Shown here: positions 120-55,084 of the stretch, in pieces | Layout: the number at the start of each line of letters is the position of its first letter | Numbering within the stretch: the stretch's first letter is position 1 | Origin: a virus | Reading direction: 5' to 3' (one strand) | Length of the DNA: 64,000 nt | IMG/VR virus record: IMGVR_UViG_3300042508_000221 | Coordinates: 1-64,000 of that record | Position numbers and translations under genes: made by a program | The notes under the pieces: generated by a model | Seen by the model: only the letters and a program-made list of their open reading frames with translations | Told to the model about the DNA's origin: nothing | Database searches by the model: none

Positions 120-599
120 ATGAAGGGTCGCCCCCCAACGCCGAAACACATCCTCGCCATGCGTGGTTCCAAGCACGCCAAGAACCGCGAGGAGCTTGGT
201 GCCGCGCCGCCGGCCCCGATCCAGCCTGCCGAGTGGCTGAAACCTCGGGCGAAGGAGATTTTCTCCCGTGTCGTGGCGTGGCTGGACGGCATGGGCACCC
301 TGGCCGAATCCGACGAACACGTCATCACGAGGTACGCGACGACCTACGTTATGTGGGAGTACGCGACCCAGCAGCTCCAGGCGGTCGACTCAGCCTACGT
401 TGAGGTTCTGGCCCCCGACGGCTCGATCCGATTCTCTCGTCCAGTGGCAATGGCAATGCAGGCAAAAGAGTGCGGCGAGGCGCTTCGGCACCTCGAGACC
501 GTGCTCGGCCTGACCCCCGGCGATCGAACCCGCCTCGGCTACGGAGCCGTGAAGGTGGTCGTCGATCCGATGGATGCTCTGCTCGCCAAGCGTGGTTGA
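120..599 (+). CDS. terS: Terminase small subunit, P27 family
   Basis: A 159-residue protein that would recognise phage DNA and recruit the packaging motor. It opens with a basic MKGRPPTPKHILAMRG segment, typical of P27-family small terminases (GRPP...K...G). A helical body with AMQAKECGEALRHLETVLGL follows, matching the family's conserved centre. The length is normal for the family. The gene overlaps the large subunit by 26 bases, the usual order and coupling for terminase pairs. It starts 60 bases after the hairpin at 35-59. Confidence 0.85.
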   Translation: MKGRPPTPKHILAMRGSKHAKNREELGAAPPAPIQPAEWLKPRAKEIFSRVVAWLDGMGTLAESDEHVITRYATTYVMWEYATQQLQAVDSAYVEVLAPDGSIRFSRPVAMAMQAKECGEALRHLETVLGLTPGDRTRLGYGAVKVVVDPMDALLAKRG

Positions 600-3162
600 T
601 ATCCGCGATTTCATCGGCCTGCTGAAGCACAGTCGCGGCGACTTTGCGGGGAAGCCTTTCGTCCTCGAGCGATGGCAGGACGAGTACCTCGACAAGCTCT
701 TCAACACGAAGAAGGCCGACGGCCTGCGGCAGTATCGAACGAGTTTACTTGCGTTGCCCCGCAAGAATGGAAAAGCGCTGGCCCTGGATACGCCTGTGCT
801 GACGACCACAGGCTGGTCGACAATGGGCGATCTGAATGTCGGCGATCACGTCTTCCACCCCAATGGCTACCCGGTAAGAGTAATTGCGGCGACAGAGGTA
901 ATGCACGGGCGGCCTTGCTATGGGGTCAAGTTCCGCAAAGGCGAAACTATCGTCGCTGACGCGGAGCATTTGTGGAAAACGGTGGCCTACAACGGCGGCC
1001 CCGGCGGCGGACGTGGCTTCAGGCACGCCGACCGCGGCGGCGAGGCTATCCGCACGACGCGGACGATTGCCAAAAGCTGCACGCTGAGTGGCAGGAAACA
1101 GGCTAACCATTCAATCCCAGTTGGCGGTGCCATCCAGCTCCCAGCGAAGAGCCTTCCGATAGACCCCTATGTCTTTGGTCTCTGGCTCGGCGACGGCTCA
1201 AAAACGCAGCCGATGATTGCCGTCGGTGCCGGCGACGAGCAGACGATCAGTAACATCGAGGACTGCGGCTACGACACGCGAGTCACGAGGCGAGTCACGC
1301 AAGGCAGGCCAAACAATGTGGTCAGCCTCGCGGGCCAGCTTACTCCAGACGGCCGTCGAGTCGTCGATCACCTGCGGTCCTTGGGTGTATTTGGCAACAA
1401 GCATGTACCTCGCGAATACATCGAATCGTCTGTCGAGCAGCGGCTCAGTCTTTTGCAGGGTCTCATGGATTCGGACGGATACGCGAGCGAGAGCGGATTG
1501 TGCGTATTCGTGAACAACAATAAGGCTATTGTTGACGGACTCGCCGAGGTCGTGCGTTCACTTGGGATGAAGGCTTATGTGACGGCGAAAAAGAGCACCA
1601 GCGCCGGCAAGGACTACGGAATCATCTATCAGGTAGTGTTTACTGCGTGGCACCCCACGCGAATTTTTCGCCTTTCGCGAAAACAGGAAAGAATCAAGCC
1701 GCGCCCAGAGAAAAGAAGCAAAACTGGCTTTCACTACATCGCGGAGTGCCAGCCGACCGACTCCGTCCCCGTCCGCTGCATTCAAGTCGATTCGCCTGAC
1801 GGGATGTTCCTCGTCGGCCGCTCGCTCATCCCGACGCACAACTCTGCGCTCTGCGCCGCCATCGGCATCTACATGATGTGCTGCGACGACGAGGGGGCAG
1901 AGGTGATCGTCGCGGCCGGCGACCGCGCGCAGGCTTCGCTCCTGCACACGGCTGCAAAGCAGTTCGTCGAGGGTTGTCCGTCACTGATGAAGAGATGCCG
2001 CATCTACAGAAATAGCATCGTCTTCCCTGAGAAGAACTCCACGATGCTGTGCATCAGCAGCGAAAGTGCCACGAAACACGGTTACAACCCAAGCTGCTGC
2101 CTCATTGACGAAATGCACGTCTTCCCCGACCGCGAGCTGATCGACGTTCTGGAGACCGGCATGGGTGCCAGAAGCCAGCCGCTGACCATCTACATCACGA
2201 CGGCCGGCACCGACATGGACGGCCCGTGCTACAAGGACTGGCAGCGGGCACTCAAGATTCGCGACGGCGTCCTGAAGGACGACTCGTTCCTGCCCTGCAT
2301 ATACGCCGCCGATCCCGAGGACGACCCGTTCATCGAGGAGACTTGGAAGAAGGCCAACCCGAACTACGGAATCACGCTAAAACCCGACTATTTCAGGCAA
2401 TTTTCGGAAAAAGCCAAGTCCTCACCCACCGACGAAGTCGTCTTCCGCACGCTGCACTTGAACCAGTGGCAGAAGTCGGAAACCAAGTGGATCAGGCACG
2501 GTGCCTGGGACGCCAACAACGTGCCGCTGCGGCCGACGGCGGGGCGGCCGTGCTGGTGCGGCGTCGACCTCGCCAGCACGTTCGACACGACGGCGTTCGT
2601 GGCGATCTGGCCTGACGCCGATGGAACGTATGACGTTCACGCCCACTTCTTCATCCCCGAGGAGAACGCGCACAGGCGGGCGAAGGAGGATCGGGTGCCG
2701 TATCACGCCTGGGCGGATGCGGGTTTTGTTACACTAACAGATGGCGACATAACGGATTACGACGCCGTCCGCGACTACATTCTCTCGTTCGCCGAGAAGA
2801 ATGCGGTTCGGGGTATTGCAATCGACCGCTGGAATGCGGTGCATCTGACGACGCAGCTCGTATCGGAGGGAATCGACGTTAAGCCGTTTGGACAAGGTTT
2901 TGCGAGCATGTCAGCGCCGAGCAAGCTGCTCGAAACCTTGACCATCTCCAGACGCTTGCGGCACGCCGGCAACCCTGTTCTGGCGTGGCAGATGTCGAAT
3001 GTTCAGGTCAAGATCGACGATGCCGGGAACATAAAGCCTACTAAGAAACACTCACATTCGACGGCCCGCATCGACGGCGCGGTCTCTCTGATCATGGCCC
3101 TCGGTATCTCCTCCAGCGAGAACCACGGCAACACCGACGAACCAACCCTCATGGTGCTCTAG
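574..3162 (+). CDS. terL: Terminase large subunit precursor, interrupted by an intein
   Basis: An 862-residue precursor; removing the intein (residues 68-423) leaves a 506-residue terminase, normal for the HK97-like Terminase_1 family. The ATPase loop reads LPRKNGK before the intein and SALCAA after it, so splicing rebuilds the Walker A-like motif. The Walker B motif is CLIDEMHVF (Asp512-Glu513), followed by the coupling segment YITTAGTD. The nuclease domain starts at GVDLAST (Asp665), with IDRWNA and a late ARIDGAVS motif. It cuts concatemeric DNA and pumps it into the prohead. Without splicing the ATP site is split and the protein should be inactive. Confidence 0.92.
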   Translation: MLCSPSVVDIRDFIGLLKHSRGDFAGKPFVLERWQDEYLDKLFNTKKADGLRQYRTSLLALPRKNGKALALDTPVLTTTGWSTMGDLNVGDHVFHPNGYPVRVIAATEVMHGRPCYGVKFRKGETIVADAEHLWKTVAYNGGPGGGRGFRHADRGGEAIRTTRTIAKSCTLSGRKQANHSIPVGGAIQLPAKSLPIDPYVFGLWLGDGSKTQPMIAVGAGDEQTISNIEDCGYDTRVTRRVTQGRPNNVVSLAGQLTPDGRRVVDHLRSLGVFGNKHVPREYIESSVEQRLSLLQGLMDSDGYASESGLCVFVNNNKAIVDGLAEVVRSLGMKAYVTAKKSTSAGKDYGIIYQVVFTAWHPTRIFRLSRKQERIKPRPEKRSKTGFHYIAECQPTDSVPVRCIQVDSPDGMFLVGRSLIPTHNSALCAAIGIYMMCCDDEGAEVIVAAGDRAQASLLHTAAKQFVEGCPSLMKRCRIYRNSIVFPEKNSTMLCISSESATKHGYNPSCCLIDEMHVFPDRELIDVLETGMGARSQPLTIYITTAGTDMDGPCYKDWQRALKIRDGVLKDDSFLPCIYAADPEDDPFIEETWKKANPNYGITLKPDYFRQFSEKAKSSPTDEVVFRTLHLNQWQKSETKWIRHGAWDANNVPLRPTAGRPCWCGVDLASTFDTTAFVAIWPDADGTYDVHAHFFIPEENAHRRAKEDRVPYHAWADAGFVTLTDGDITDYDAVRDYILSFAEKNAVRGIAIDRWNAVHLTTQLVSEGIDVKPFGQGFASMSAPSKLLETLTISRRLRHAGNPVLAWQMSNVQVKIDDAGNIKPTKKHSHSTARIDGAVSLIMALGISSSENHGNTDEPTLMVL
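775..1842 (+). other. Class 3 intein with LAGLIDADG endonuclease, inside terL
   Basis: A 356-residue in-frame insertion. Block A is ALALDTPVLTTTGW, with Ala instead of Cys at position 1. Block B has AEHLW (Trp67 of the intein). Block F has VRCIQVDSPDG (Cys335). Block G ends IPTHN before Ser+1 (Thr354, His355, Asn356). Ala1 plus the Trp-Cys-Thr set is the signature of class 3 inteins, where the block F cysteine starts splicing. Two LAGLIDADG-like helices, GLWLGDGS and LLQGLMDSDGY (precursor residues about 201 and 293), mark a homing endonuclease. The insertion is exactly after the Walker A lysine, a conserved site where homing would be hard to escape. Confidence 0.9.
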
Positions 3163-3163
3163 C

Positions 3164-4810
3164 GTGGACAAGATCGACGAGGAAGTCTCCGATCTGATTG
3201 AGCTTCGCGGCAATCTCTCCCGTATTTTCGAGGAGATTTCCAACACCAGACGCACGGCATCAGGCGTCACCGTCTCGCCAGAGACCGCTCTTGAATGCAC
3301 TGCCGTATTGGCGTGCGTTCGCGTCTTATCGGAATCGATTGCCAGCCTCCCGTTCAACGTCTACCGCAGGCTCCCCGGCGGCGGCAAGGAAATCGCCGAA
3401 GAACAGCACCTCCACGAGGTCATCTGCTACCAGCCCAACTCGTGGATGACGGGCTTCGAGTTCCGCGAGCTGATGCAAAGCTGGCTCCTCCTCTGGGGCA
3501 ACGCCTACGCCCACATCAAGGGCGGCCGTCAGGGCGGCGTGACTGAGCTGATCCCTCTGCATCCGTCGCGGATGGAGGTCAAGCGGCTCACCAACGGCAA
3601 GCTACGGTACTACTACACCGAGCCGACGACGCCGATCCAGCCACAGATCAACGTGACGGAGTATCGGCAGGACGAGATTTTTCATCTTCGCTGGCTCAGT
3701 TCGGACGGCGTGACCGGATTCGTTCCGACGACGCTCTCCAGGGACGCCATCGGACTGGCCCGAGCGACCGAATTGCACTCTGGTGCATTCTTCGGGAACG
3801 GTGCGACACCGGGCACCTATATCGAAACCGATCAGCCCCACAAGCCCGAGGTGCTGTCAAGATTCAAGGAACAGTGGAACGACGCTCATTCCGGCCCCGA
3901 CAAGGCTTACAAGACCGTTGTCATGCCGTTCGGCTTCCATCGGAAGCAGGTCGAGGTTCGGAATGACACGGCCCAGCTCATTGAGACCAGGAAGTATCAA
4001 GTCGAAGAGGTGGCTCGGGCATACCGCGTGCCGCCGCACCTGCTCGGCGATCTGTCGAACGTGCGTTTCTCGACGGTGGAGCAATCGGCCATCGACTTCG
4101 TCACGTTCTCGTTGATCCCGTGGTGCCGCCGATGGGAATCGGCCTGCCGCCGCGATCTAGTGGTCGATGACAAGCAGTATTTCTGTCAGTTCGACGTGAA
4201 TGCCCTGATGGCCGGTGACTATGCGGCGAGGTCGCAGTTCATTCGGGAGATGGCGAACCTCGGGGCACTTGATGTCGACGAAATCCGCGCTCAAATCGGC
4301 TACAACCCGCTACCGGACGGCCTGGGCAAGAAGCGGTTCGTGCAGGTCAACATGCAGTTGCTGGAGGCGTTCACTCCCGACAACCCGACCGGCCAGAAGC
4401 AGCAGCCGGAAGCGACCCCCTCGCCCCCGGTCAGCGTTGACGGGACGCCGGAACCGTCGGCCACCGACGCTCCCGCAGCCGCCGAGGACGCTCGCCAGCT
4501 TGCCGGTGCCGAAGTTATCTTCAAAACGACTCTTCGTCGACTCGCCGCCGTCGAAGCCGACGGAATCCTCGAGCGACGTGCCAAGCCCGAGAAGATCGCG
4601 ACGTGGTTCGATCAGACGAGCCAGCGGATGCGGGAAGAACTTCGCGAGGCCGCAGAGGCCACTGGCCGAGACATCGACAAGTTCGTAGGAGATTGGGTGA
4701 ACCGCTCGCGAGACCTCTTGCTTGAGTGTCATCGCAGCGGTCAGAAGTACGAAACCGTCACTGAAGGCTGGTGCGACAAGCACCTGACAACCGATGCCGC
4801 AAGCACCTGA
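3164..4810 (+). CDS. Portal protein, HK97 family
   Basis: A 548-residue protein with a GTG start one base after the terL stop. It forms the ring at the capsid vertex through which DNA passes. Family features seen: a start of the ALECTAVLACVRVLSESIA type, then LPFNVYRR, LLLWGNAYAHI, the DEIFHLRWLSSDG segment, and VEEVARAYRVPPHLLGDL followed by FSTVEQ, the most diagnostic stretch of Phage_portal proteins. The C-terminal 140 residues are Pro/Ala-rich, then helical. The gene overlaps the next one by 17 bases. Confidence 0.92.
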   Translation: MDKIDEEVSDLIELRGNLSRIFEEISNTRRTASGVTVSPETALECTAVLACVRVLSESIASLPFNVYRRLPGGGKEIAEEQHLHEVICYQPNSWMTGFEFRELMQSWLLLWGNAYAHIKGGRQGGVTELIPLHPSRMEVKRLTNGKLRYYYTEPTTPIQPQINVTEYRQDEIFHLRWLSSDGVTGFVPTTLSRDAIGLARATELHSGAFFGNGATPGTYIETDQPHKPEVLSRFKEQWNDAHSGPDKAYKTVVMPFGFHRKQVEVRNDTAQLIETRKYQVEEVARAYRVPPHLLGDLSNVRFSTVEQSAIDFVTFSLIPWCRRWESACRRDLVVDDKQYFCQFDVNALMAGDYAARSQFIREMANLGALDVDEIRAQIGYNPLPDGLGKKRFVQVNMQLLEAFTPDNPTGQKQQPEATPSPPVSVDGTPEPSATDAPAAAEDARQLAGAEVIFKTTLRRLAAVEADGILERRAKPEKIATWFDQTSQRMREELREAAEATGRDIDKFVGDWVNRSRDLLLECHRSGQKYETVTEGWCDKHLTTDAAST

Positions 4811-5267
4811 AGGCGTGATCGACGCCCTGCAAGCCTCCGTTCGGCTGCACATGACCGCGATTGAGACGTATCAGTCGCAGGCCGAGCACTTCGATCGATG
4901 GGGCTACGGGAAGCTGGCCGACACGAGCCGCTTCGAGGCCGAAGAGGAACGCCGCCACCTGCATGAGGTGCAGGCTCGGCTTGAATACTACGACGTTCAG
5001 CCGGCCTACGACCACGACCAGCCCGACTGGCCGCGGCACGACTTCGAGGGCATCCTCGCAGCCAACCTGTCGCTTGAAACCGCCGCCGCGGAGGCCGAGC
5101 GAGCCAACGTGACGGCCTGCCGTGCCGTCGGCGACGAGATTTCCGCCGTCATCTTCACCCGGTTGCTCGAAGGCAGCGAAGAAGCGGTGGCCGCGATCGA
5201 AGCAAAACAGCGTGTGATCGAGCAGATCGGTGTGGACAACTACCTCGCGAATCAGGTGACGGCATGA
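4794..5267 (+). CDS. Bacterioferritin-like four-helix protein with a degraded ferroxidase site
   Basis: 157 residues, against 158 for E. coli Bfr, and alignable by eye without gaps. Shared landmarks are VIDAL near the start, TAIETY...F.RWG, an ExxxExxH region and the C-terminal IEQIGVDNYLANQ. Against Bfr ligands: Glu51 and His54 are kept (Glu52, His55), Glu94 is kept, but Glu18 becomes His19, Glu127 becomes Ser and His130 becomes Ala. The haem ligand Met52 is Arg53. So the fold and probably the cage contacts persist while iron oxidation is doubtful. It overlaps portal by 17 bases and the protease by 4 (ATGA), implying co-translation with head proteins. A role in the virion is inference. Confidence 0.75.
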   Translation: MPQAPEGVIDALQASVRLHMTAIETYQSQAEHFDRWGYGKLADTSRFEAEEERRHLHEVQARLEYYDVQPAYDHDQPDWPRHDFEGILAANLSLETAAAEAERANVTACRAVGDEISAVIFTRLLEGSEEAVAAIEAKQRVIEQIGVDNYLANQVTA

Positions 5268-6931
5268 GCAATGAAATTGAACGGCGCACGACGGTCTCGG
5301 ACGCGACGATTGAGTACCGAGACATGGGAAACGGCGAGAAGAAGCCTGTGATTTCGGGCTACGCCGCCGTCTTCAACGCTGAGAGCCGCAACCTGGGCGG
5401 CTTCGTCGAGACGATTCACCCGAATGCGTTCGACGAAGTGCTGGCCGAGAACCCCGATGTCATCGGCGTGTTCAATCACGACCGCAATCTGCTCCTCGGC
5501 CGCACCGGAAACGGGTCGATGAAGCTCACGAAAGACCCCTATGGTCTTCGTTACGAGATCACGCCGAACGAAAACACGTCCATCGGCCGCGACGTGATCG
5601 AATGGGTGAAGGATAGGACAGTCGTGGGGTCAAGTTTCGCCTTCGCAATCCGTCGGGATAATGGCGATTCGTGGTCTACGGACAATACTCGTGGCATTCG
5701 GAAGCGAGAAGTGAGAGCAATTGGGCTGCTTGAAGATGTCGGGCCAGTGGTTCGGCCTGCATATGACTCGTCCAGCGTGGTGGTGAGCCGTCGAGCCATC
5801 GAAATGGCCCTCGGCGAGAGCCATCGGCCCATCCAAACGATGGCGAACGCGGCGAAACGCGGTCTGAAGCTCGCCCAGAAGGCAGAAAACATCGATTCTC
5901 GCCTCCTGTGCATCGCCGAACGTGTCGCAAACCGCGAAATCGTCTCCGTCGAGGAGGTTTCGTACCTCTCGGGAGTCTACGGACGCTGTTTGGCGGCGAA
6001 AGTGACGGGCTGGTCGGGCACGCCGGCCTGGATCGAGTGGCAACTGGCCGGCGGAGATGCAGGGCAGAAGTGGGTGGATCGGCGTGCTGCTTCCGCGCAG
6101 CCGGAAGCAGCCCCGTCGGTGGACTCTGCCACTGAAATCCCTGTTTCCGACGCTCCTGCCGAGGAACGAGCCGCCTCCGACGTGAATCTGAAGCCCACCG
6201 CGGGCATGGCAGCCGCCGCGAAGCGAGGATTGGCCCTCCACGAGGAAGGCCGATCGGGCGACGGGCTCAAGCCCGAGACGGTGGCGCGTGCCGGCAAGAT
6301 CGCCGACCGCGACGAACTCACTCCCGAGCACGTTCGCGAGATGCGGGCGTGGTTTCGGCGTCACAAGGTCGACAAGAAGGCCGGCTGGAGCGCGAAAGGC
6401 GCTGAGACCCCCGGCTATACCGCCTGGATGCTCTGGGGCGGCGACCCGGCGTGGCGGTGGAGTGAGGCCAAGGTCTCACAGATGGAGCGTGCCGCTGGAA
6501 AGCGAGACATCGTCGAAGGCGAGGAGATCGAGGAAGAGTACGAATCCATGCTCTCGCCCGCGAACCTCGCCCTGGCTGAGTCCTATGAGGGCATCGCCGA
6601 GGAATTCGGCGCGTTCTCGCAGAACGATGCCCACTACATGACCGAGAACCCGTTTGCCAAGGACGGCATGAAGTGCAGCAACTGCGTCTTCTTCGAGAGC
6701 GAGGAAGGCAGGTGCTACATCGTGCAAGGCGAGATCGCCGCTGATGCGATCTGCAAACTGTGGATCATCCCCGAGGAGCGTATGAGCGAAGAAAAGAAGC
6801 CGGAACCCGTCGACGAGAAGGTCGCCGAGGACATGCGGGCGGCCAAGGAACAGTTGGACATCGACGTGAAGCTGGCGGCTCTGAAGGCCACAATCCTTCG
6901 GACTCAGTTGCACGGTCTTCCGAAGGCTTGA
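5264..6931 (+). CDS. Prohead protease (HK97 family) with a long C-terminal extension
   Basis: 555 residues, roughly 2.5 times the usual length. Residues 1-185 are a HK97-type prohead protease: SGYAAVFN, the catalytic FNHD (His72) with LLGRT, and VVGSSFAF (Ser124), followed by EVRAIGLLEDVGPVVRPAY. It would trim the capsid precursor. The rest holds two copies of a helical module (A.AAKRGL.L... ending in W.LWGGD or WQLAGGD, about residues 190-280 and 310-405) and a late cysteine motif CSNCVFF...GRCYIVQGE...AICKLW (about 468-502). The extension may act as scaffold, since no separate scaffold gene is seen. The ATG overlaps the upstream stop. Confidence 0.88.
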   Translation: MSNEIERRTTVSDATIEYRDMGNGEKKPVISGYAAVFNAESRNLGGFVETIHPNAFDEVLAENPDVIGVFNHDRNLLLGRTGNGSMKLTKDPYGLRYEITPNENTSIGRDVIEWVKDRTVVGSSFAFAIRRDNGDSWSTDNTRGIRKREVRAIGLLEDVGPVVRPAYDSSSVVVSRRAIEMALGESHRPIQTMANAAKRGLKLAQKAENIDSRLLCIAERVANREIVSVEEVSYLSGVYGRCLAAKVTGWSGTPAWIEWQLAGGDAGQKWVDRRAASAQPEAAPSVDSATEIPVSDAPAEERAASDVNLKPTAGMAAAAKRGLALHEEGRSGDGLKPETVARAGKIADRDELTPEHVREMRAWFRRHKVDKKAGWSAKGAETPGYTAWMLWGGDPAWRWSEAKVSQMERAAGKRDIVEGEEIEEEYESMLSPANLALAESYEGIAEEFGAFSQNDAHYMTENPFAKDGMKCSNCVFFESEEGRCYIVQGEIAADAICKLWIIPEERMSEEKKPEPVDEKVAEDMRAAKEQLDIDVKLAALKATILRTQLHGLPKA

Positions 6932-7082
6932 TAGTCTACAGGTAGACACATTGCTTCACGACGGATGTCGTGAGGAGCAGTGCGAGCGTCTTGAGGATTC
7001 AAGCACGCGGCGCGCTAGCGGGATCACCCGCCGGCCGCCGCATCGTGCGTTAGGCCGGCTCAATCACAGGAGCAGGCCAAAC
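6932..7082 (+). promoter_or_regulatory. Structured leader upstream of the capsid gene
   Basis: A 151-base gap in an otherwise gapless head operon. It contains a perfect hairpin GTCTAC-AG-GTAGAC (6934-6947), a second perfect hairpin CACGAC-GGAT-GTCGTG (6957-6972) and further GC-rich pairing around 6985-7060. An AGGAGCAGG Shine-Dalgarno precedes the capsid ATG at 7083. Likely roles are mRNA stabilisation, a processing site or a capsid-gene promoter; none is proven by sequence. Confidence 0.5.
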
Positions 7083-8435
7083 ATGGCATCGAATCTCAAG
7101 CGTCTTCAGGAACGTGCCGCGGCTGTCGCCGCTCGGATGACCGAACTGTCCGGTATCGAGGATCGCTCGGCCGAGCAGACCAAGGAACTCATCTCGCTCG
7201 GCACTCAGGCCGACGACCTGAAGACTTCCCTCGACTTCGAGGAGCGGATCGCCGCCAAGGAAGCCGAGCTGCGTGCGGTGGTCGAGAAGGCCGCCCCCGC
7301 CCCGGCCCCGGTTGCCGAAGTGGCCGCCAAGGCCGAGGACAAGAAGGTCGAGATTCGTTCGATCCAGCCCCACCACACCAGCCTGCGGGCGTTCAACGAC
7401 GGCCCCGAGGCCGTCGAGAGCGCGTATCGATGCGGCCGGTGGCTCCGGGCCCATATCTTCAAGAACGCCGAAGACCTTCGCTGGTGCAAGGATCACGGCG
7501 TCGAGAGCCGTGCCCTGGGCGAGAGCAGCAACTCGTCGGGTGGCGCTCTAGTGCCCGAAGAGTTTGCGGCCCGCGTGATTCGTCTCGTCGAAAACTACGG
7601 CACCTTCGCCGCGAGCAACGTCGAGAAGGTCACGATGACCCGCGACACCCTCGTGATCCCCAAGCGGGTTACGGGCACCGCAGCGTACTTCGTGGGCGAA
7701 GGGACGGCGGTAAACGAGAGCGAGCCCACTTATTCCAATGTGCAGCTTATCGCCAAAAAGCTGGCGGTTGGCACTCGGATGTCGAGCGAAATCGTAGAGG
7801 ACGCTCTGGTTTCGATTGCTGATGCTGTGGCAGTGGAGTTCAGCACCTCGCTGTCGCTCAAGCAGGATATGTGCGGTTGGTTGGGTGACGGCACCTCCAG
7901 CTTCGGCGGAATCCACGGCGTGGTGCCGAAGATCAACGACGGCACTCACACCGCTGGCGTGCTGACTGCCGGCACGGGTGCGACGGGCTTCGAGACCCTG
8001 ACCGTGACCGACTTCATCAAGCTGATCGGCCGGATGCCGCTGTACGCCCGCCAGGGTGCAGCCTTCTACATCTCGCCGGCCGGTTTCGCTGCCTCGATGG
8101 CCCGCCTCCGCTACGCGGCTGGTGGCAACACCGTCGAGCAGGTCGGTGGCGGCGTGAACGAGCAGTTCCTCGGCTACCCGGTGAACCTCGTCCACGTCAT
8201 GGACGGCACGCTCGGTGCCGACGCTGGCAAGGTGAAGGTGCTGTTCGCGAACCTCGGCCTGTCGAGCATCTACGCTCGTCGCCGTGACTTCTCGGTCAAG
8301 ATGTACGACCAAGTGTACGCCACGACCGACCAGTTGCTCCTCCAGGGAACGCTTCGCTTCGACATTAACCACCACTCGCTGGGCGACAACACGACCGCCG
8401 GCCCGGTGGTGGCCCTCAAGACCGCGGCGTCCTGA
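7083..8435 (+). CDS. Major capsid protein, HK97 fold
   Basis: 450 residues from the ATG at 7083, chosen because AGGAGCAGG sits just before it; the frame stays open upstream to 6951. The N-terminal 100 residues are a charged coiled coil (LKRLQERAAAVAARMTEL), the delta domain that substitutes for a scaffold and is removed by the protease. The core follows: SSNSSGGALVPEEFAARVI, TLVIPKRVTGTAAYFVGEG, ARQGAAFYISPAGFA and FLGYPVNLVHVMDG, all hallmarks of Phage_capsid proteins. It is expected to be the most abundant virion protein. Confidence 0.92.
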   Translation: MASNLKRLQERAAAVAARMTELSGIEDRSAEQTKELISLGTQADDLKTSLDFEERIAAKEAELRAVVEKAAPAPAPVAEVAAKAEDKKVEIRSIQPHHTSLRAFNDGPEAVESAYRCGRWLRAHIFKNAEDLRWCKDHGVESRALGESSNSSGGALVPEEFAARVIRLVENYGTFAASNVEKVTMTRDTLVIPKRVTGTAAYFVGEGTAVNESEPTYSNVQLIAKKLAVGTRMSSEIVEDALVSIADAVAVEFSTSLSLKQDMCGWLGDGTSSFGGIHGVVPKINDGTHTAGVLTAGTGATGFETLTVTDFIKLIGRMPLYARQGAAFYISPAGFAASMARLRYAAGGNTVEQVGGGVNEQFLGYPVNLVHVMDGTLGADAGKVKVLFANLGLSSIYARRRDFSVKMYDQVYATTDQLLLQGTLRFDINHHSLGDNTTAGPVVALKTAAS

Positions 8436-38557: not shown

Positions 38558-38796
38558 GGCGGGAGCATCTATCCAGGGAGCCGGCCTGCATCGCGTGCGG
38601 GCGCGACGATGAGCTGGAGGTGCATCACATCCAGCCGTACCACGCAGACCCGGCGCTCGAGCTTGATCCCGGCAACCTCGCGACCATGTGCCGAGACTGC
38701 CACTACTCCGTCGCGCACGCCTACGACTGGAGGTCGTGGAGGCCCGACGTGCGGAGGATTGCCGAGGCTATCAAGACCGCTGAAGTGAAACGCTAG
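38491..38796 (+). CDS. HNH endonuclease
   Basis: 101 residues. EPACIACGRDDELEVHHIQP, then LDPGNLATMCRDCHYSVAH, is a complete HNH with two CxxC zinc pairs. HNH proteins of this size often help terminase cut DNA, though they usually lie beside terS; here it stands at the end of the tail block and may be a homing enzyme. Confidence 0.8.
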   Translation: MLNWLRRQTDDLFGRSGAWARVRREHLSREPACIACGRDDELEVHHIQPYHADPALELDPGNLATMCRDCHYSVAHAYDWRSWRPDVRRIAEAIKTAEVKR

Positions 38797-39647
38797 ACCA
38801 CCTTCGGCAGCACGCTCGGGGCGGGCACGCCTGGGCTGACGATGCGAGGGTCGAGGTACTTCTTCGTCACCGCTGGGCTGGAGTGATCAAGAAGTCGCTG
38901 GGCCGACCCGCCGGCAGCCTCGTAGTAGCTCGCCGTCGTCTTGCGGATGCGGTGAAACTTGCACCGGCGGTCGCTGGGCAGGCCCGCCCGCTGGAGGATG
39001 ATCTTCAGTATCCGCCAGAGACAGGTGTGGTGCCGATCCCACGGGATCGCGGTGTCGTCGGGGCCGCGGCGAATCGCCAGGAGGGCGTCGGCGCACTCGA
39101 CGCTGATCTCGCGGAGGATGTCCCGCCGCCTGCCCTTCCGCTCCTCGGCCCTGAAGATGACGTTGCACCCGCGCACGTCGGAGGCCCGCACCTCGACGAC
39201 CGAGGCGATGCGCTCCCCCGTGTCGTAGCACAGCAAGAGAATGGCCTTCCACACCGAGGCGGCCTGAAAGCCACCGATGCGGCCTTGCTCCTGGGCGGCA
39301 GACGCCAGGATCGCCTTCATCTCGTCAGTCAGCCACGCCTCTGGGATTCGCTCGGGCACGATGATCCTGGGCACCTGCGGCCAAGTGTCACAGAGCTTCC
39401 GGCGGGCGCAGAACTCCCAGAGGGCGCGAAGCTGGGCCCGGTCTTTCGCCGCCGTGGCCGCCGACATCTCGCGGACGCGGTGGGCCAGAAAACGGGCAAC
39501 CGCGAGTTCTTCGAGGTCGCTTGTCTCTGGCGGTCGCCCGAGCACCGCCCCCCAGGAGCGGAGGGTGTAGCCATAGAGGGTGATGGTGCGGTCGCTGACT
39601 CCGGTCAGCGGAGCGTAAAGATCGACGAGAACGCGATGCAATGTCAC
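38793..39647 (-). CDS. int: Tyrosine recombinase / integrase
   Basis: 284 residues from a GTG at 39647, preferred because AGGGAG lies 9 bases before it; an ATG at 39695 is possible. Catalytic set (short numbering): Arg146 (GERIASV), Lys171 (EERKGRR), His232-Arg235 (FHRIRK), His255 (LLDHSS) and Tyr264 (KKYLD). An N-terminal SAM-like core-binding domain is present. It would carry out site-specific integration. It faces the tail genes tail-to-tail and overlaps the HNH gene by 4 bases. One of only two clear genes on this strand. Confidence 0.9.
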   Translation of the reverse strand: MTLHRVLVDLYAPLTGVSDRTITLYGYTLRSWGAVLGRPPETSDLEELAVARFLAHRVREMSAATAAKDRAQLRALWEFCARRKLCDTWPQVPRIIVPERIPEAWLTDEMKAILASAAQEQGRIGGFQAASVWKAILLLCYDTGERIASVVEVRASDVRGCNVIFRAEERKGRRRDILREISVECADALLAIRRGPDDTAIPWDRHHTCLWRILKIILQRAGLPSDRRCKFHRIRKTTASYYEAAGGSAQRLLDHSSPAVTKKYLDPRIVSPGVPAPSVLPKVV

Positions 39648-39701
39648 GGTGTGATTCTCCCTCTTGAGAAGTACCACCTCCATGCGAAACAGCAATCCCG
39701 A

Positions 39702-46540: not shown

Positions 46541-46547
46541 CGTAAGT

Positions 46548-46566
46548 GGCTACTGACTAACACTTT
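46548..46566 (+). promoter_or_regulatory. Recurrent GGCTACT motif copy
   Basis: GGCTACTGACTAACACTTT, preceded by GTGACG (46538-46543), in the gap between primase and helicase genes. Its right half repeats the copy at 12324-12342 almost base for base. Confidence 0.5.
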
Positions 46567-46618
46567 AGGGTGGACCGAAAACCCGCCCACAAAACCCCAA
46601 GGAAGGAAAAGCGGTCCA

Positions 46619-48262
46619 ATGCAAGTTGCAAGGCTCATCGGTGGTGCTGGAACAGGGAAGACAACGGAGTTACTCGGGATCATGAAGTCGGTGCTCGAGC
46701 AGATCGGCGACACGCCGTCTGCCATCGGGTTTGCCAGCTTCACGACGGCGGCCCGCGAGGAGATGGTGAACCGGGCGGCAGCGGCGTTTGACTGCCACCC
46801 CTCCATGCTGGACAAGCATGGCTGGTTTCGGACGGTGCATTCGACGTGCTTCAAGATGCTCGACCTGAAGACCGAGCAGATGCTCACCAGGGACGACAAG
46901 GCGTCGAAATGGATCGCCGACCGGCTCCGCGTCTCGGTCTCGTGGAAGAAGGTCGGGGATAGCGGGTACGCGGCCTGTGTGGGCGACGACGAGGCGGCTG
47001 CCTCCCTGACGCTCTGGGACATCGCCAGAAGCCGTATCGTGCCTTTGGCCTCTGTTCACGCCGAGAAGTCCCATGCGGGGCTGGACGTGCCTCCTATCGC
47101 CACCGTGAGGCATTTCATCAGGAAGTACGAGGATGCCAAGCGGATCGACGGCAAATCCGACTTCGTGGACATCCTCGGCCGGTATGCCGGAGTGAGGTTC
47201 CCTTTGGAGGGGCCGGAGGAAATGGAGCCGGAGGGTGATTTGCCAGAGGGCGTGCAGGCGTGGGTATTCGATGAGGCTCAGGACTCGTCAGCACTGGTCG
47301 ATCGCGTCTGCCGGCGGTTGGCGTATGGGCGGGGGGTCAAGTGGACGTACCTAGCCGCGGACCCTTTTCAGTCGGTCTTCGGCTTCGGCGGCGCAGACTA
47401 CAACAACTTCCTGTCGTGGAACGTCGACAAGGAGCGGACGATGCCGCAGTCCTGGCGGTGCCCAAAGCCCGTAATGGAGCTTGGCGAGCGGTGCTTGCGG
47501 CGGATGCACAAGGGATACTTCGACCGGAAGATCGCCCCTGCATCCCACGACGGGTGCGTCATCCGCGAGGCGTCCGTCGAGCGGGCGCTGAGTCAGGTCG
47601 ATGGTAGCCGCTCGACACTGGTGCTAGCTCGCTGCAACTACTCGCTGGCGAAGTTCTCCCAGGTGCTCGAGTCTAGGCGGATTCCTCACGCCGGCATCAA
47701 CGACAAGGACGACACAAAGGGGCTGGTGGCCTACAACGCCTACTGGAAGCTTCAACACGGCCAGGGCATTGGAGGGCATGAGTGGAAGGCGGCCATCGAG
47801 CTGACGCCCGTAAAGGCTACTGGTGACGCCATCTTTCTGCGGCGGGGCGCGAAGTCGGCCTGGAGCAAGGGTGCCAGGGACGACGTTGACTTCATCGCGG
47901 CCGACGAAATCGCCGACCTCGGCGGCGTGACTCCGGCCCTGATGGAGCTGATCCAGTCTGGCGGATGGGCGTCCCTGCTGGACGGCGGGAAGAAGTGGTA
48001 CGACTCTGCAAAGAGGCACGGGCCGGCGACCGCGACGAAGCCGAATGTTCGTCTGTCGACCATTCACGGGGCCAAGGGGATGGAGGCCCAAGACGTGATC
48101 CTGGCGACCGAGACGGCCGCCCGCGTCGAGCAGGAGCGAGAACTTGACCCACGGTGCCACGACGAGGAGTGCCGGCTTGAGTACGTCGGCGTCACTCGGG
48201 CAAAAGAACGGCTGATTGTGTGCGAATCTGACGAACCCTACGCAATGGAGCTGCCACGCTGA
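46619..48262 (+). CDS. UvrD/Rep-type superfamily 1 helicase
   Basis: 547 residues. Motif I GGAGTGKTTEL, motif Ia FASFTTAAREEM, motif II VFDEAQDSS, motif III YLAADPFQSVFGF, motif IV PQSWRCPKPV, motif V STIHGAKGMEAQDV and motif VI YVGVTRAKERL. A 3'-5' DNA helicase for replication or recombination. It overlaps the next ATG by one base. Confidence 0.9.
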   Translation: MQVARLIGGAGTGKTTELLGIMKSVLEQIGDTPSAIGFASFTTAAREEMVNRAAAAFDCHPSMLDKHGWFRTVHSTCFKMLDLKTEQMLTRDDKASKWIADRLRVSVSWKKVGDSGYAACVGDDEAAASLTLWDIARSRIVPLASVHAEKSHAGLDVPPIATVRHFIRKYEDAKRIDGKSDFVDILGRYAGVRFPLEGPEEMEPEGDLPEGVQAWVFDEAQDSSALVDRVCRRLAYGRGVKWTYLAADPFQSVFGFGGADYNNFLSWNVDKERTMPQSWRCPKPVMELGERCLRRMHKGYFDRKIAPASHDGCVIREASVERALSQVDGSRSTLVLARCNYSLAKFSQVLESRRIPHAGINDKDDTKGLVAYNAYWKLQHGQGIGGHEWKAAIELTPVKATGDAIFLRRGAKSAWSKGARDDVDFIAADEIADLGGVTPALMELIQSGGWASLLDGGKKWYDSAKRHGPATATKPNVRLSTIHGAKGMEAQDVILATETAARVEQERELDPRCHDEECRLEYVGVTRAKERLIVCESDEPYAMELPR

Positions 48263-54102: not shown

Positions 54103-54830
54103 CCCCCATCGAAGACAAAGCCCTCGCCGCCTTCCTTCTGGGCGTTCCTGCCGCGATGGCCGGCACGACCGACGACGCCGTGCCGGACGCGAGGTACATC
54201 GAGTACGGTTCTCGATTCCGCGATTACACAGTTCGCTTCTCCGGCCGCGACGATGACGGCAAATACTCGGAGGCGACGGCAACTCTGCTGTCCCCGCACT
54301 GGGCGATCACTGCGGCGCACGTTGCCGTCGGCGTCAGCGGGATCACGCTGTCGAACCGTCTGGTTGACCGAGTGGTCATCCACCCGGACTGGGACGACGA
54401 CAAGAACGGATTTCACGATCTGGCCCTGCTGCACTGTGACAAGCCCGCTGGCATTGCCTACTATCCACCACTTAGCGACGGCGACGAGAAGGTCGGACAG
54501 ACGGTCAGCATCGTCGGCTACGGCCTCTACGGGAAGCTGACTGCGGGGCACGAGGGCTACGACGGCAAGCTGCGGGCGGGGACGCAGACGATCGAGCGTT
54601 TCGAGCGGTCGGTCATCGTCTGCCACGCTCAGTGTGGGACGAGCACGCTCGAGTTCTGCATCTCGCCTGGGGACTCAGGAGGCCCGCTTTTCGCCGGAGG
54701 CAAGCTGGCCGGGGTCAATAGTTTCACGATGGCCCCGAGGGGGCCGCTGAAGAGCCGCCAGGGCGAGGAGACGGCGCACACGCGGGTGAGTTTGTATCGG
54801 GAGTGGATCAAGGAGGTAACCGGAGAATGA
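54099..54830 (+). CDS. Trypsin-like (S1 family) serine protease
   Basis: 243 residues. The triad is His74 (AITAAHV), Asp107 (FHDLALL) and Ser193 (SPGDSGGPLF). VIHPDWDDDKNGFHDL is the usual stretch before the Asp. Residues about 8-21 (ALAAFLLGVPAAMA) form a weak signal peptide, and there are four cysteines (113, 175, 179, 187) of which some could pair. S1 proteases are rare in phages. Roles could be in the virion, in the periplasm or against host or rival proteins. Overlaps genes on both sides by 4 bases. Confidence 0.82.
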   Translation: MTPIEDKALAAFLLGVPAAMAGTTDDAVPDARYIEYGSRFRDYTVRFSGRDDDGKYSEATATLLSPHWAITAAHVAVGVSGITLSNRLVDRVVIHPDWDDDKNGFHDLALLHCDKPAGIAYYPPLSDGDEKVGQTVSIVGYGLYGKLTAGHEGYDGKLRAGTQTIERFERSVIVCHAQCGTSTLEFCISPGDSGGPLFAGGKLAGVNSFTMAPRGPLKSRQGEETAHTRVSLYREWIKEVTGE

Positions 54831-55084
54831 GCGTCGAACGACTTGAAGAGCTTACCGAGATCAACCCCGAAGCGCTCCTGGCCGACGGCCTCGAGTCGGC
54901 GTTCATCGGCTACACGGCGAATCATCATCACGCCGTCGTCGCCGTCTACGACTACGACAAGTGCGTCCAGGCTCTCGTCGACCGCGACGGCATGACGCAC
55001 GAGGAGGCCGACGAGTTCCTCGAGTTCAACACGCTCGGAGCCTACGTCGGCGAGAACGGCCCGCTGTATGTGAGGCTTGGTTAA
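54827..55084 (+). CDS. Conserved phage protein of unknown function
   Basis: 85 residues from ATG 54827. FIGYTANHHHAVVAVYDYDK, RDGMTHEEADEFLEFNTLGA and YVGENGPLYV. This VYDY.KC...L..RDGMT.EEA.EF.EFN..GAYVG pattern is common in phages and has no assigned role. Confidence 0.7.
   Translation: MSVERLEELTEINPEALLADGLESAFIGYTANHHHAVVAVYDYDKCVQALVDRDGMTHEEADEFLEFNTLGAYVGENGPLYVRLG

What the first reader, a model, noticed from the sequence alone, without database searches (positions are those of the whole stretch)
4794..5267. Bacterioferritin-fold protein built into the head operon, with half its ferroxidase site lost
The protein aligns along its full length, without gaps by eye, to bacterioferritin (157 versus 158 residues), yet Glu18, Glu127, His130 and haem Met52 equivalents are changed while Glu51, His54 and Glu94 equivalents remain. 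It is translationally coupled to portal and prohead protease. A cage-forming iron protein turned into a head component, or a device carrying metal in the virion, would be unusual. It could bear on ideas that phages carry or mimic host iron.
Basis: partly seen in the sequence, partly recalled or inferred. Interest (0 to 1): 0.85.

Follow-up and report, generated by a model that had tools for sequence, protein, structure and literature searches.

The report
Optional phage gene derived from bacterioferritin
A virus of (probably planctomycete) bacteria carries, between two capsid-assembly genes, a remodelled copy of a bacterial iron-storage protein; many close relatives have lost it or swapped it for a very different version, so it looks like an optional metal-handling accessory rather than a required part of the virus shell.

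Summary
Window 4794-5267 (+) encodes a 157-aa ferritin-fold protein (here 'FLP') that aligns full length with bacterioferritin (Bfr) and overlaps the portal and prohead-protease genes. Pfam Ferritin 1.8e-12; AlphaFold pLDDT 95.6; the top PDB fold matches are all Bfr or bacterial ferritin, TM mostly 0.9 or more.

It belongs to a large phage family: 223 IMG/VR places ring to its profile. In 30 aligned members E18 is invariantly His, E51 and H54 are kept, E94 is Glu/Asp, E127 is invariantly Ser and H130 is Ala/Ser/Gly. Haem Met52 becomes Arg (27 of 30). In the tree all FLPs form one clade.

'Built into the head' does not hold. Among 117 distinct relatives of the portal, 64 lack FLP, 35 carry one allele class and 18 another, about 55% identical. 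Clean deletions and whole-gene swaps occur between phages with nearly identical flanks. Other phages carry FLP in the replication block or beside an integrase; planctomycete MAG contigs carry it too.

Loss of E127/H130 is not a phage invention: many planctomycete Bfrs lack both. E18>His and loss of the haem Met separate the phage clade.

Best reading: an optional, late-expressed, metal-handling Bfr derivative. Virion association is untested.

The parts
4794..5267 (+). FLP: 157-aa bacterioferritin-derived ferritin-like protein
   Evidence: Pfam PF00210 1.8e-12; TIGR00754 4e-18, below cut-off; PDB Bfr 2e-13; AlphaFold pLDDT 95.6, helices 8-35, 39-65, 84-111, 115-145, 147-152; Foldseek TM mostly 0.9 or more to Bfr
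4848..4850 (+). codon of His19, at the position of the Bfr ligand Glu18
   Evidence: His in 30 of 30 aligned family members
4947..4958 (+). codons Glu52-Arg53-Arg54-His55 (Bfr Glu51, Met52, -, His54): two ligands kept, haem Met lost
   Evidence: Glu52 and His55 in 30/30; Arg53 in 27/30, otherwise Phe/Leu
5076..5078 (+). codon of Glu95 (Bfr Glu94)
   Evidence: Glu in 21 and Asp in 9 of 30; the Asp form marks allele class D
5175..5186 (+). codons Ser128 to Ala131 (Bfr Glu127 and His130): both ligands lost
   Evidence: Ser128 in 30/30; residue 131 Ser 16, Ala 11, Gly 3
3164..4810 (+). HK97-type portal protein, overlaps the FLP start by 17 nt
   Evidence: Pfam Phage_portal 9.8e-94, TIGR01537 2.8e-65
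5264..6931 (+). prohead protease (S78), start overlaps the FLP stop (ATGA); C-terminal HiPIP-like 4-Cys motif from residue 471
   Evidence: Pfam Peptidase_S78 1.7e-36; Cys motif
6951..8435 (+). HK97-fold major capsid protein (context)
   Evidence: Pfam Phage_capsid 2e-26, TIGR01554 1.3e-42
574..3162 (+). large terminase interrupted by an intein-like segment with LAGLIDADG/homing endonuclease motifs (context)
   Evidence: Pfam TerL_nuclease 4e-51, TerL_ATPase 7e-19, Hom_end 1.4e-08

Best explanation
FLP is an accessory (moron-like) phage gene encoding a bacterioferritin derivative. SHOWN: Bfr-type fold by prediction; one sequence clade; a fixed slot between portal and protease; repeated loss and whole-gene replacement there; other genomic locations in other phages; purifying selection. 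INFERRED: it is made late from the head transcript by translational coupling, but acts mainly as a soluble metal-handling protein in the infected cell. The reworked site (His19, Glu52, His55 and Glu/Asp95, with Ser128 in place of the bridging Glu127) would hold one metal ion rather than a di-iron pair, so it would bind Fe(II) or another divalent metal rather than run the classical Bfr ferroxidase cycle. Without the haem Met and with the ferredoxin-docking surface altered, stored metal could not be released by the usual Bfd route. The likely benefit is removing or buffering iron and limiting Fenton damage while virions assemble.
For: Family and fold. Invariant remodelled site. Slot: portal-FLP-protease order in nearly all head-bearing loci. 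Dispensable: 84 of 120 portal+protease loci have no FLP; 64 of 117 distinct portals; none elsewhere in 22 such records (same query rings in 3 of 3 positive genomes). Deletion scars: L154 against L093, flanks 95-96% identical at DNA level, FLP missing except its first codons; L139 keeps the FLP C-terminus DQIGLDNYLVNKVQE in frame on the portal; L192 fuses MSQPLD to the protease. Swap: L011 against L089 drop from 93% to 49-69% only across FLP and return to 92%. Presence needs at least 8 changes and the A/D/none state 17 changes on the portal tree. Other places: replication block and integrase side, planctomycete MAG contigs. dN/dS 0.07-0.18 within allele classes. Bfd-docking residues from PMC13366587 compared on the alignment: L68>Gln69, G80>Arg81.
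Against: No metal, oligomer, expression or virion data exist. The conserved slot inside the head operon would also fit a dispensable virion protein. Several E. coli Bfr assembly residues are changed, so a 24-mer cage is not assured.
Confidence: 0.5

Rival explanations
1. FLP is a non-essential virion protein (decoration or internal head protein), perhaps carrying metal in the particle, like dispensable decoration proteins of other phages.
For: Fixed slot between portal and protease with overlapping starts and stops. BFVD fold matches include proteins named prohead protease of uncultured phages, TM 0.64-0.72 on the query, so ferritin-like domains may be tied to head proteins elsewhere. The protease C-terminus has a HiPIP-like 4-Cys motif.
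Against: Related phages carry FLP outside the head module; planctomycete contigs carry it; no conserved tail or targeting extension; absent in most relatives of the portal.
Confidence: 0.22
2. FLP is a Bfr mimic that co-assembles with the host Bfr and alters host iron storage or release.
For: Hetero-Bfr cages of functionally unequal subunits are known (PMC6529640, PMC12120770), and homo- and hetero-Bfr subunits can mix in vivo. FLP lacks the haem Met and has several assembly residues changed, as does M. gryphiswaldense Bfr1. Planctomycete Bfrs keep the haem Met.
Against: No interface data; only about 28% identity to any Bfr of known structure. Host inferred, not proven.
Confidence: 0.15
3. FLP serves phage-phage or phage-host conflict (exclusion, counter-defence), with metal binding incidental.
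For: Presence/absence, allele swapping and integrase-side copies are typical of such cargo.
Against: No hit to a defence family was sought or seen; ligand positions are invariant across both alleles.
Confidence: 0.1
4. FLP is a decaying Bfr copy without function.
For: Half the ferroxidase ligands are lost.
Against: 34 invariant positions in 26 diverse members, dN/dS 0.07-0.18, conserved replacement His19 and Ser128.
Confidence: 0.03

Closest known systems
Bacterioferritin (Bfr, TIGR00754)
   Same: Full-length ungapped alignment, four helices plus short fifth, Glu51, His54, Glu94, Tyr25 kept
   Different: E18>His, E127>Ser, H130>Ala/Ser/Gly, M52>Arg; bits 65.9 against a cut-off of 125.55; coded in phage head operons
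Planctomycete Bfrs with signature EEHESS
   Same: Already lack E127 and H130 (Ser/Ser)
   Different: Keep Glu18 and haem Met52, score over the TIGR00754 cut-off; separate from FLPs on long, fully supported branches
Hetero-bacterioferritins (Magnetospirillum Bfr1/Bfr2, Shewanella SoBfr12)
   Same: Precedent for subunits without haem Met or with a defective ferroxidase centre (PMC6529640, PMC12120770)
   Different: Chromosomal pairs acting together; FLP is a single phage gene with a different ligand set
Viral bfr auxiliary metabolic gene (Vrana Lake sediment virus)
   Same: Virus-encoded Bfr under purifying selection (PMC10904782)
   Different: One archaeal-virus contig with a host-derived Bfr; no head-operon slot family described in the passages read
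Phage Dps and ferritin-like proteins (Streptomyces and Lactobacillus phages, BFVD entries)
   Same: Ferritin-superfamily proteins in phages
   Different: Best fold matches of FLP are Bfr, not Dps; viral library matches are only 5-19% identical

Membership tests
Ferritin-like superfamily (Pfam PF00210) | score over the curated gathering cut-off | tested here: met
   47.8 bits against 24.5; met by four divergent members too
Ferritin-like superfamily (Pfam PF00210) | four-helix ferritin bundle | tested here: met
   AlphaFold pLDDT 95.6; TM mostly 0.9 or more to Bfr. Predicted, not solved
Bacterioferritin | score over the TIGR00754 cut-off | tested here: not met
   65.9 against 125.55 bits
Bacterioferritin | six ferroxidase ligands E18, E51, H54, E94, E127, H130 | tested here: not met
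   three of six kept
Bacterioferritin | haem ligand Met52 | tested here: not met
   Arg in 27/30, Phe/Leu in 3
Bacterioferritin | 24-mer cage | not testable with these tools
   single-chain prediction only
Bacterioferritin | ferroxidase activity and iron storage | not testable with these tools
   needs biochemistry
Core HK97-type head component | always present with portal and protease | tested here: not met
   absent in 64 of 117 distinct portals; deletion scars
Core HK97-type head component | present in virions | not testable with these tools
   needs proteomics
Phage accessory (moron-like) gene | present/absent and exchanged between close relatives | tested here: met
Phage accessory (moron-like) gene | own promoter and terminator | not tested
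   overlapping genes suggest it has none in this slot; no scan was run
Encapsulin cargo ferritin | C-terminal cargo-loading extension | tested here: not met
   by inspection of the alignment: members end within a few residues of the Bfr C-terminus, except a 7-residue tail in L033, L036 and L038
Dps | closest fold is the Dps dodecamer subunit | tested here: not met
   the 50 best PDB fold matches listed are Bfr or bacterial ferritin

The most novel reading that the evidence does not exclude
A distinct phage-borne branch of the bacterioferritin family with an invariant His for Glu18 has become a single-metal protein that phages exchange through a recombination slot inside the head operon, used to control iron during assembly or to poison or retune host Bfr cages, possibly together with the HiPIP-like 4-Cys domain on the neighbouring protease.
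Probability: 0.2. Interest if true: 0.8.

Novelty: new variant of a known kind. Interest (0 to 1): 0.55.

Why it matters
Viral bacterioferritin has been reported before, but this is a large family with its own reworked metal site and a defined exchange slot. It gives natural with/without and allele A/allele D pairs in otherwise near-identical phages, which makes the question whether phages handle or carry iron directly testable. It also warns that position in a head operon does not prove a head function.

Tried and rejected
Obligate head component: rejected by FLP-less relatives and deletion scars. FLP hidden elsewhere in FLP-less phages: none in 22 records, many of them fragments. Another gene in the slot of L194/L195 (apparent 555-nt gap): rejected, the gap is protease that the comparison missed. 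Known isolated phages with FLP: none; the one hit, MT835709, is an ordinary-looking distant Bfr at 24% with signature EEDEEH. Prophages in planctomycete genomes with this portal: only distant portals and no FLP beside them, so the host stays inferred. A link between FLP and the protease 4-Cys motif: 36 of 47 untruncated FLP+ against 13 of 53 FLP-, but phylogenetically confounded and present in several FLP- phages. Signal peptide on the chromosomal copy: open upstream frame in L041 and L043 with a signal-like stretch, but codon differences are too few to prove it coding. Paper searches for a ferritin-like gene between portal and protease gave nothing on point. In one search the second query was a made-up filler peptide entered by mistake; it had no hit and is ignored.

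Full report
OBSERVATION. The ORF at 4794-5267 (+) is real, 157 aa, between an HK97-type portal and an S78 prohead protease, overlapping both. It is a ferritin-superfamily protein by sequence (PF00210 1.8e-12), closest to bacterioferritin (TIGR00754 4e-18; PDB 5zur 2e-13 along residues 8-156). An AlphaFold model built on 26 family members has mean pLDDT 95.6 and four long helices plus a short fifth. The 50 best PDB fold matches listed are all bacterioferritins or bacterial ferritins with TM 0.85-0.95. The record that holds the window is a 74,090-bp virus contig.

THE FAMILY AND ITS SITE. Single-sequence search gives 38 IMG/VR loci; the family profile gives 223 places, of which 80 were kept (some may be other Bfrs). 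Published Bfr chemistry has Glu51 and Glu127 bridging two irons (PMC7762939). With Glu127 and His130 gone and a His added at position 18, the remaining cluster is His19, Glu52, His55 and Glu/Asp95. I infer a single-metal site. The residues at the Bfd-docking depression named in PMC13366587 are changed too, for example L68>Gln69 and G80>Arg81 (alignment), so the normal iron-release route is probably absent.

WHERE THE HALF-SITE CAME FROM. A search of 294 planctomycete genomes gave 45 with relatives, all but the 55-57% copies being cellular Bfrs at 1e-25 or weaker. Eleven of those inspected have signature EEHESS, that is Glu18 kept and E127/H130 already Ser/Ser, with the haem Met kept. Ten of twelve genomes searched have a Bfr over the TIGR00754 cut-off, mostly these same loci. 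Whether it was inherited or arose twice is not settled: in the tree the FLPs form one 64-row group, 100/100, separated from all cellular Bfrs by long branches, and E18>His marks that group.

NOT A CORE HEAD GENE. In loci with the head module, order is portal-FLP-protease almost without exception. But 84 of 120 portal+protease loci fetched by the portal itself have no FLP, the protease following the portal directly (redundant loci included). Reduced to 117 distinct portals: 64 none, 35 allele A, 18 allele D; the presence of FLP needs at least 8 changes on the portal tree and the three-state label 17, against 46 when shuffled. Scars show losses. L154 and L093 share 95-96% identical DNA on both sides and L154 lacks FLP save its first codons. 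L139 ends its portal in frame with DQIGLDNYLVNKVQE, the FLP C-terminus. L192, sister to the FLP-bearing L191/L109, starts its protease MSQPLD, the FLP start. Swaps: L011 (A) and L089 (D) are about 92-96% identical at DNA level on both sides near FLP and 49-69% within it. Within an allele class dN/dS is 0.07-0.18, so the gene is maintained where present.

OTHER PLACES. L030, L031, L034, L035, L117-L120 and later finds carry FLP in a replication block that shares genes and order with the window's early region (for example 41% to window 46541-48262 and about 70% to 54722-55084), and no PF04860 portal was found in the records of this type that were searched. L084 and L087 carry it near a tyrosine recombinase, L087 with a CsrA gene nearby. 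L041, L042 and L043 are MAG contigs labelled Planctomycetota; L041 has sulfatase-like and kinase-like neighbours by eye and an upstream signal-like stretch. MAG labels can be wrong by binning. The planctomycete host of the window phage is an inference from these.

MECHANISM. Shown: family, predicted fold, invariant residues, slot, loss, swap, selection. Inferred: late expression through coupling, single-metal binding, cytosolic action on iron or redox balance. Rivals are a dispensable virion protein (0.22), a Bfr mimic joining host cages (0.15), and a conflict gene (0.10). Hetero-Bfrs with unequal subunits are an experimental precedent for the mimic idea (PMC6529640, PMC12120770). Viral Bfr as a metabolic gene has been reported once in the papers read (PMC10904782).

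VERDICT. Observation confirmed. Interpretation partly supported: a real Bfr derivative in a head operon, but optional, exchangeable and mobile. I file it as a ferritin-superfamily protein and a new variant of phage-borne bacterioferritin, not as a Bfr (cut-off, ligands and haem Met not met) and not as a core head protein.

Noticed in passing
window 6674-6760 (protease residues 471 to about 500): Conserved HiPIP-like motif CxNC-x8/9-C-x12-C followed by KLWxIPEE at the C-terminus of the prohead protease; HIPIP is the best Pfam match in six proteins tested (E 0.009-0.06, under the cut-off). Found in 36 of 47 untruncated FLP+ and 13 of 53 FLP- proteases.
   Followed up: partly
   Followed up: no
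L255-L267, L275 (planctomycete genomes): Cellular Bfrs lacking E127 and H130 are common in Planctomycetota and are mostly the only high-scoring Bfr of their genomes; Nitrospira Bfrs have Ser or Thr at 127.
   Followed up: partly
window 574-3162: Large terminase interrupted by an intein-like segment with homing-endonuclease motifs; L001, L002 and others appear to match only the terminase parts.
   Followed up: no
L041:7884-8468, L043:6777-7097: Chromosomal FLP copies with an open, signal-peptide-like upstream stretch (MLKMLGLGLAICASSIAISA in L041), possibly an exported version.
   Followed up: partly
window 38793-39695 (-): Protein related to the recombinases beside FLP in L082, L084 and L087 (25-34% identity), so the window phage may be temperate.
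   Followed up: no
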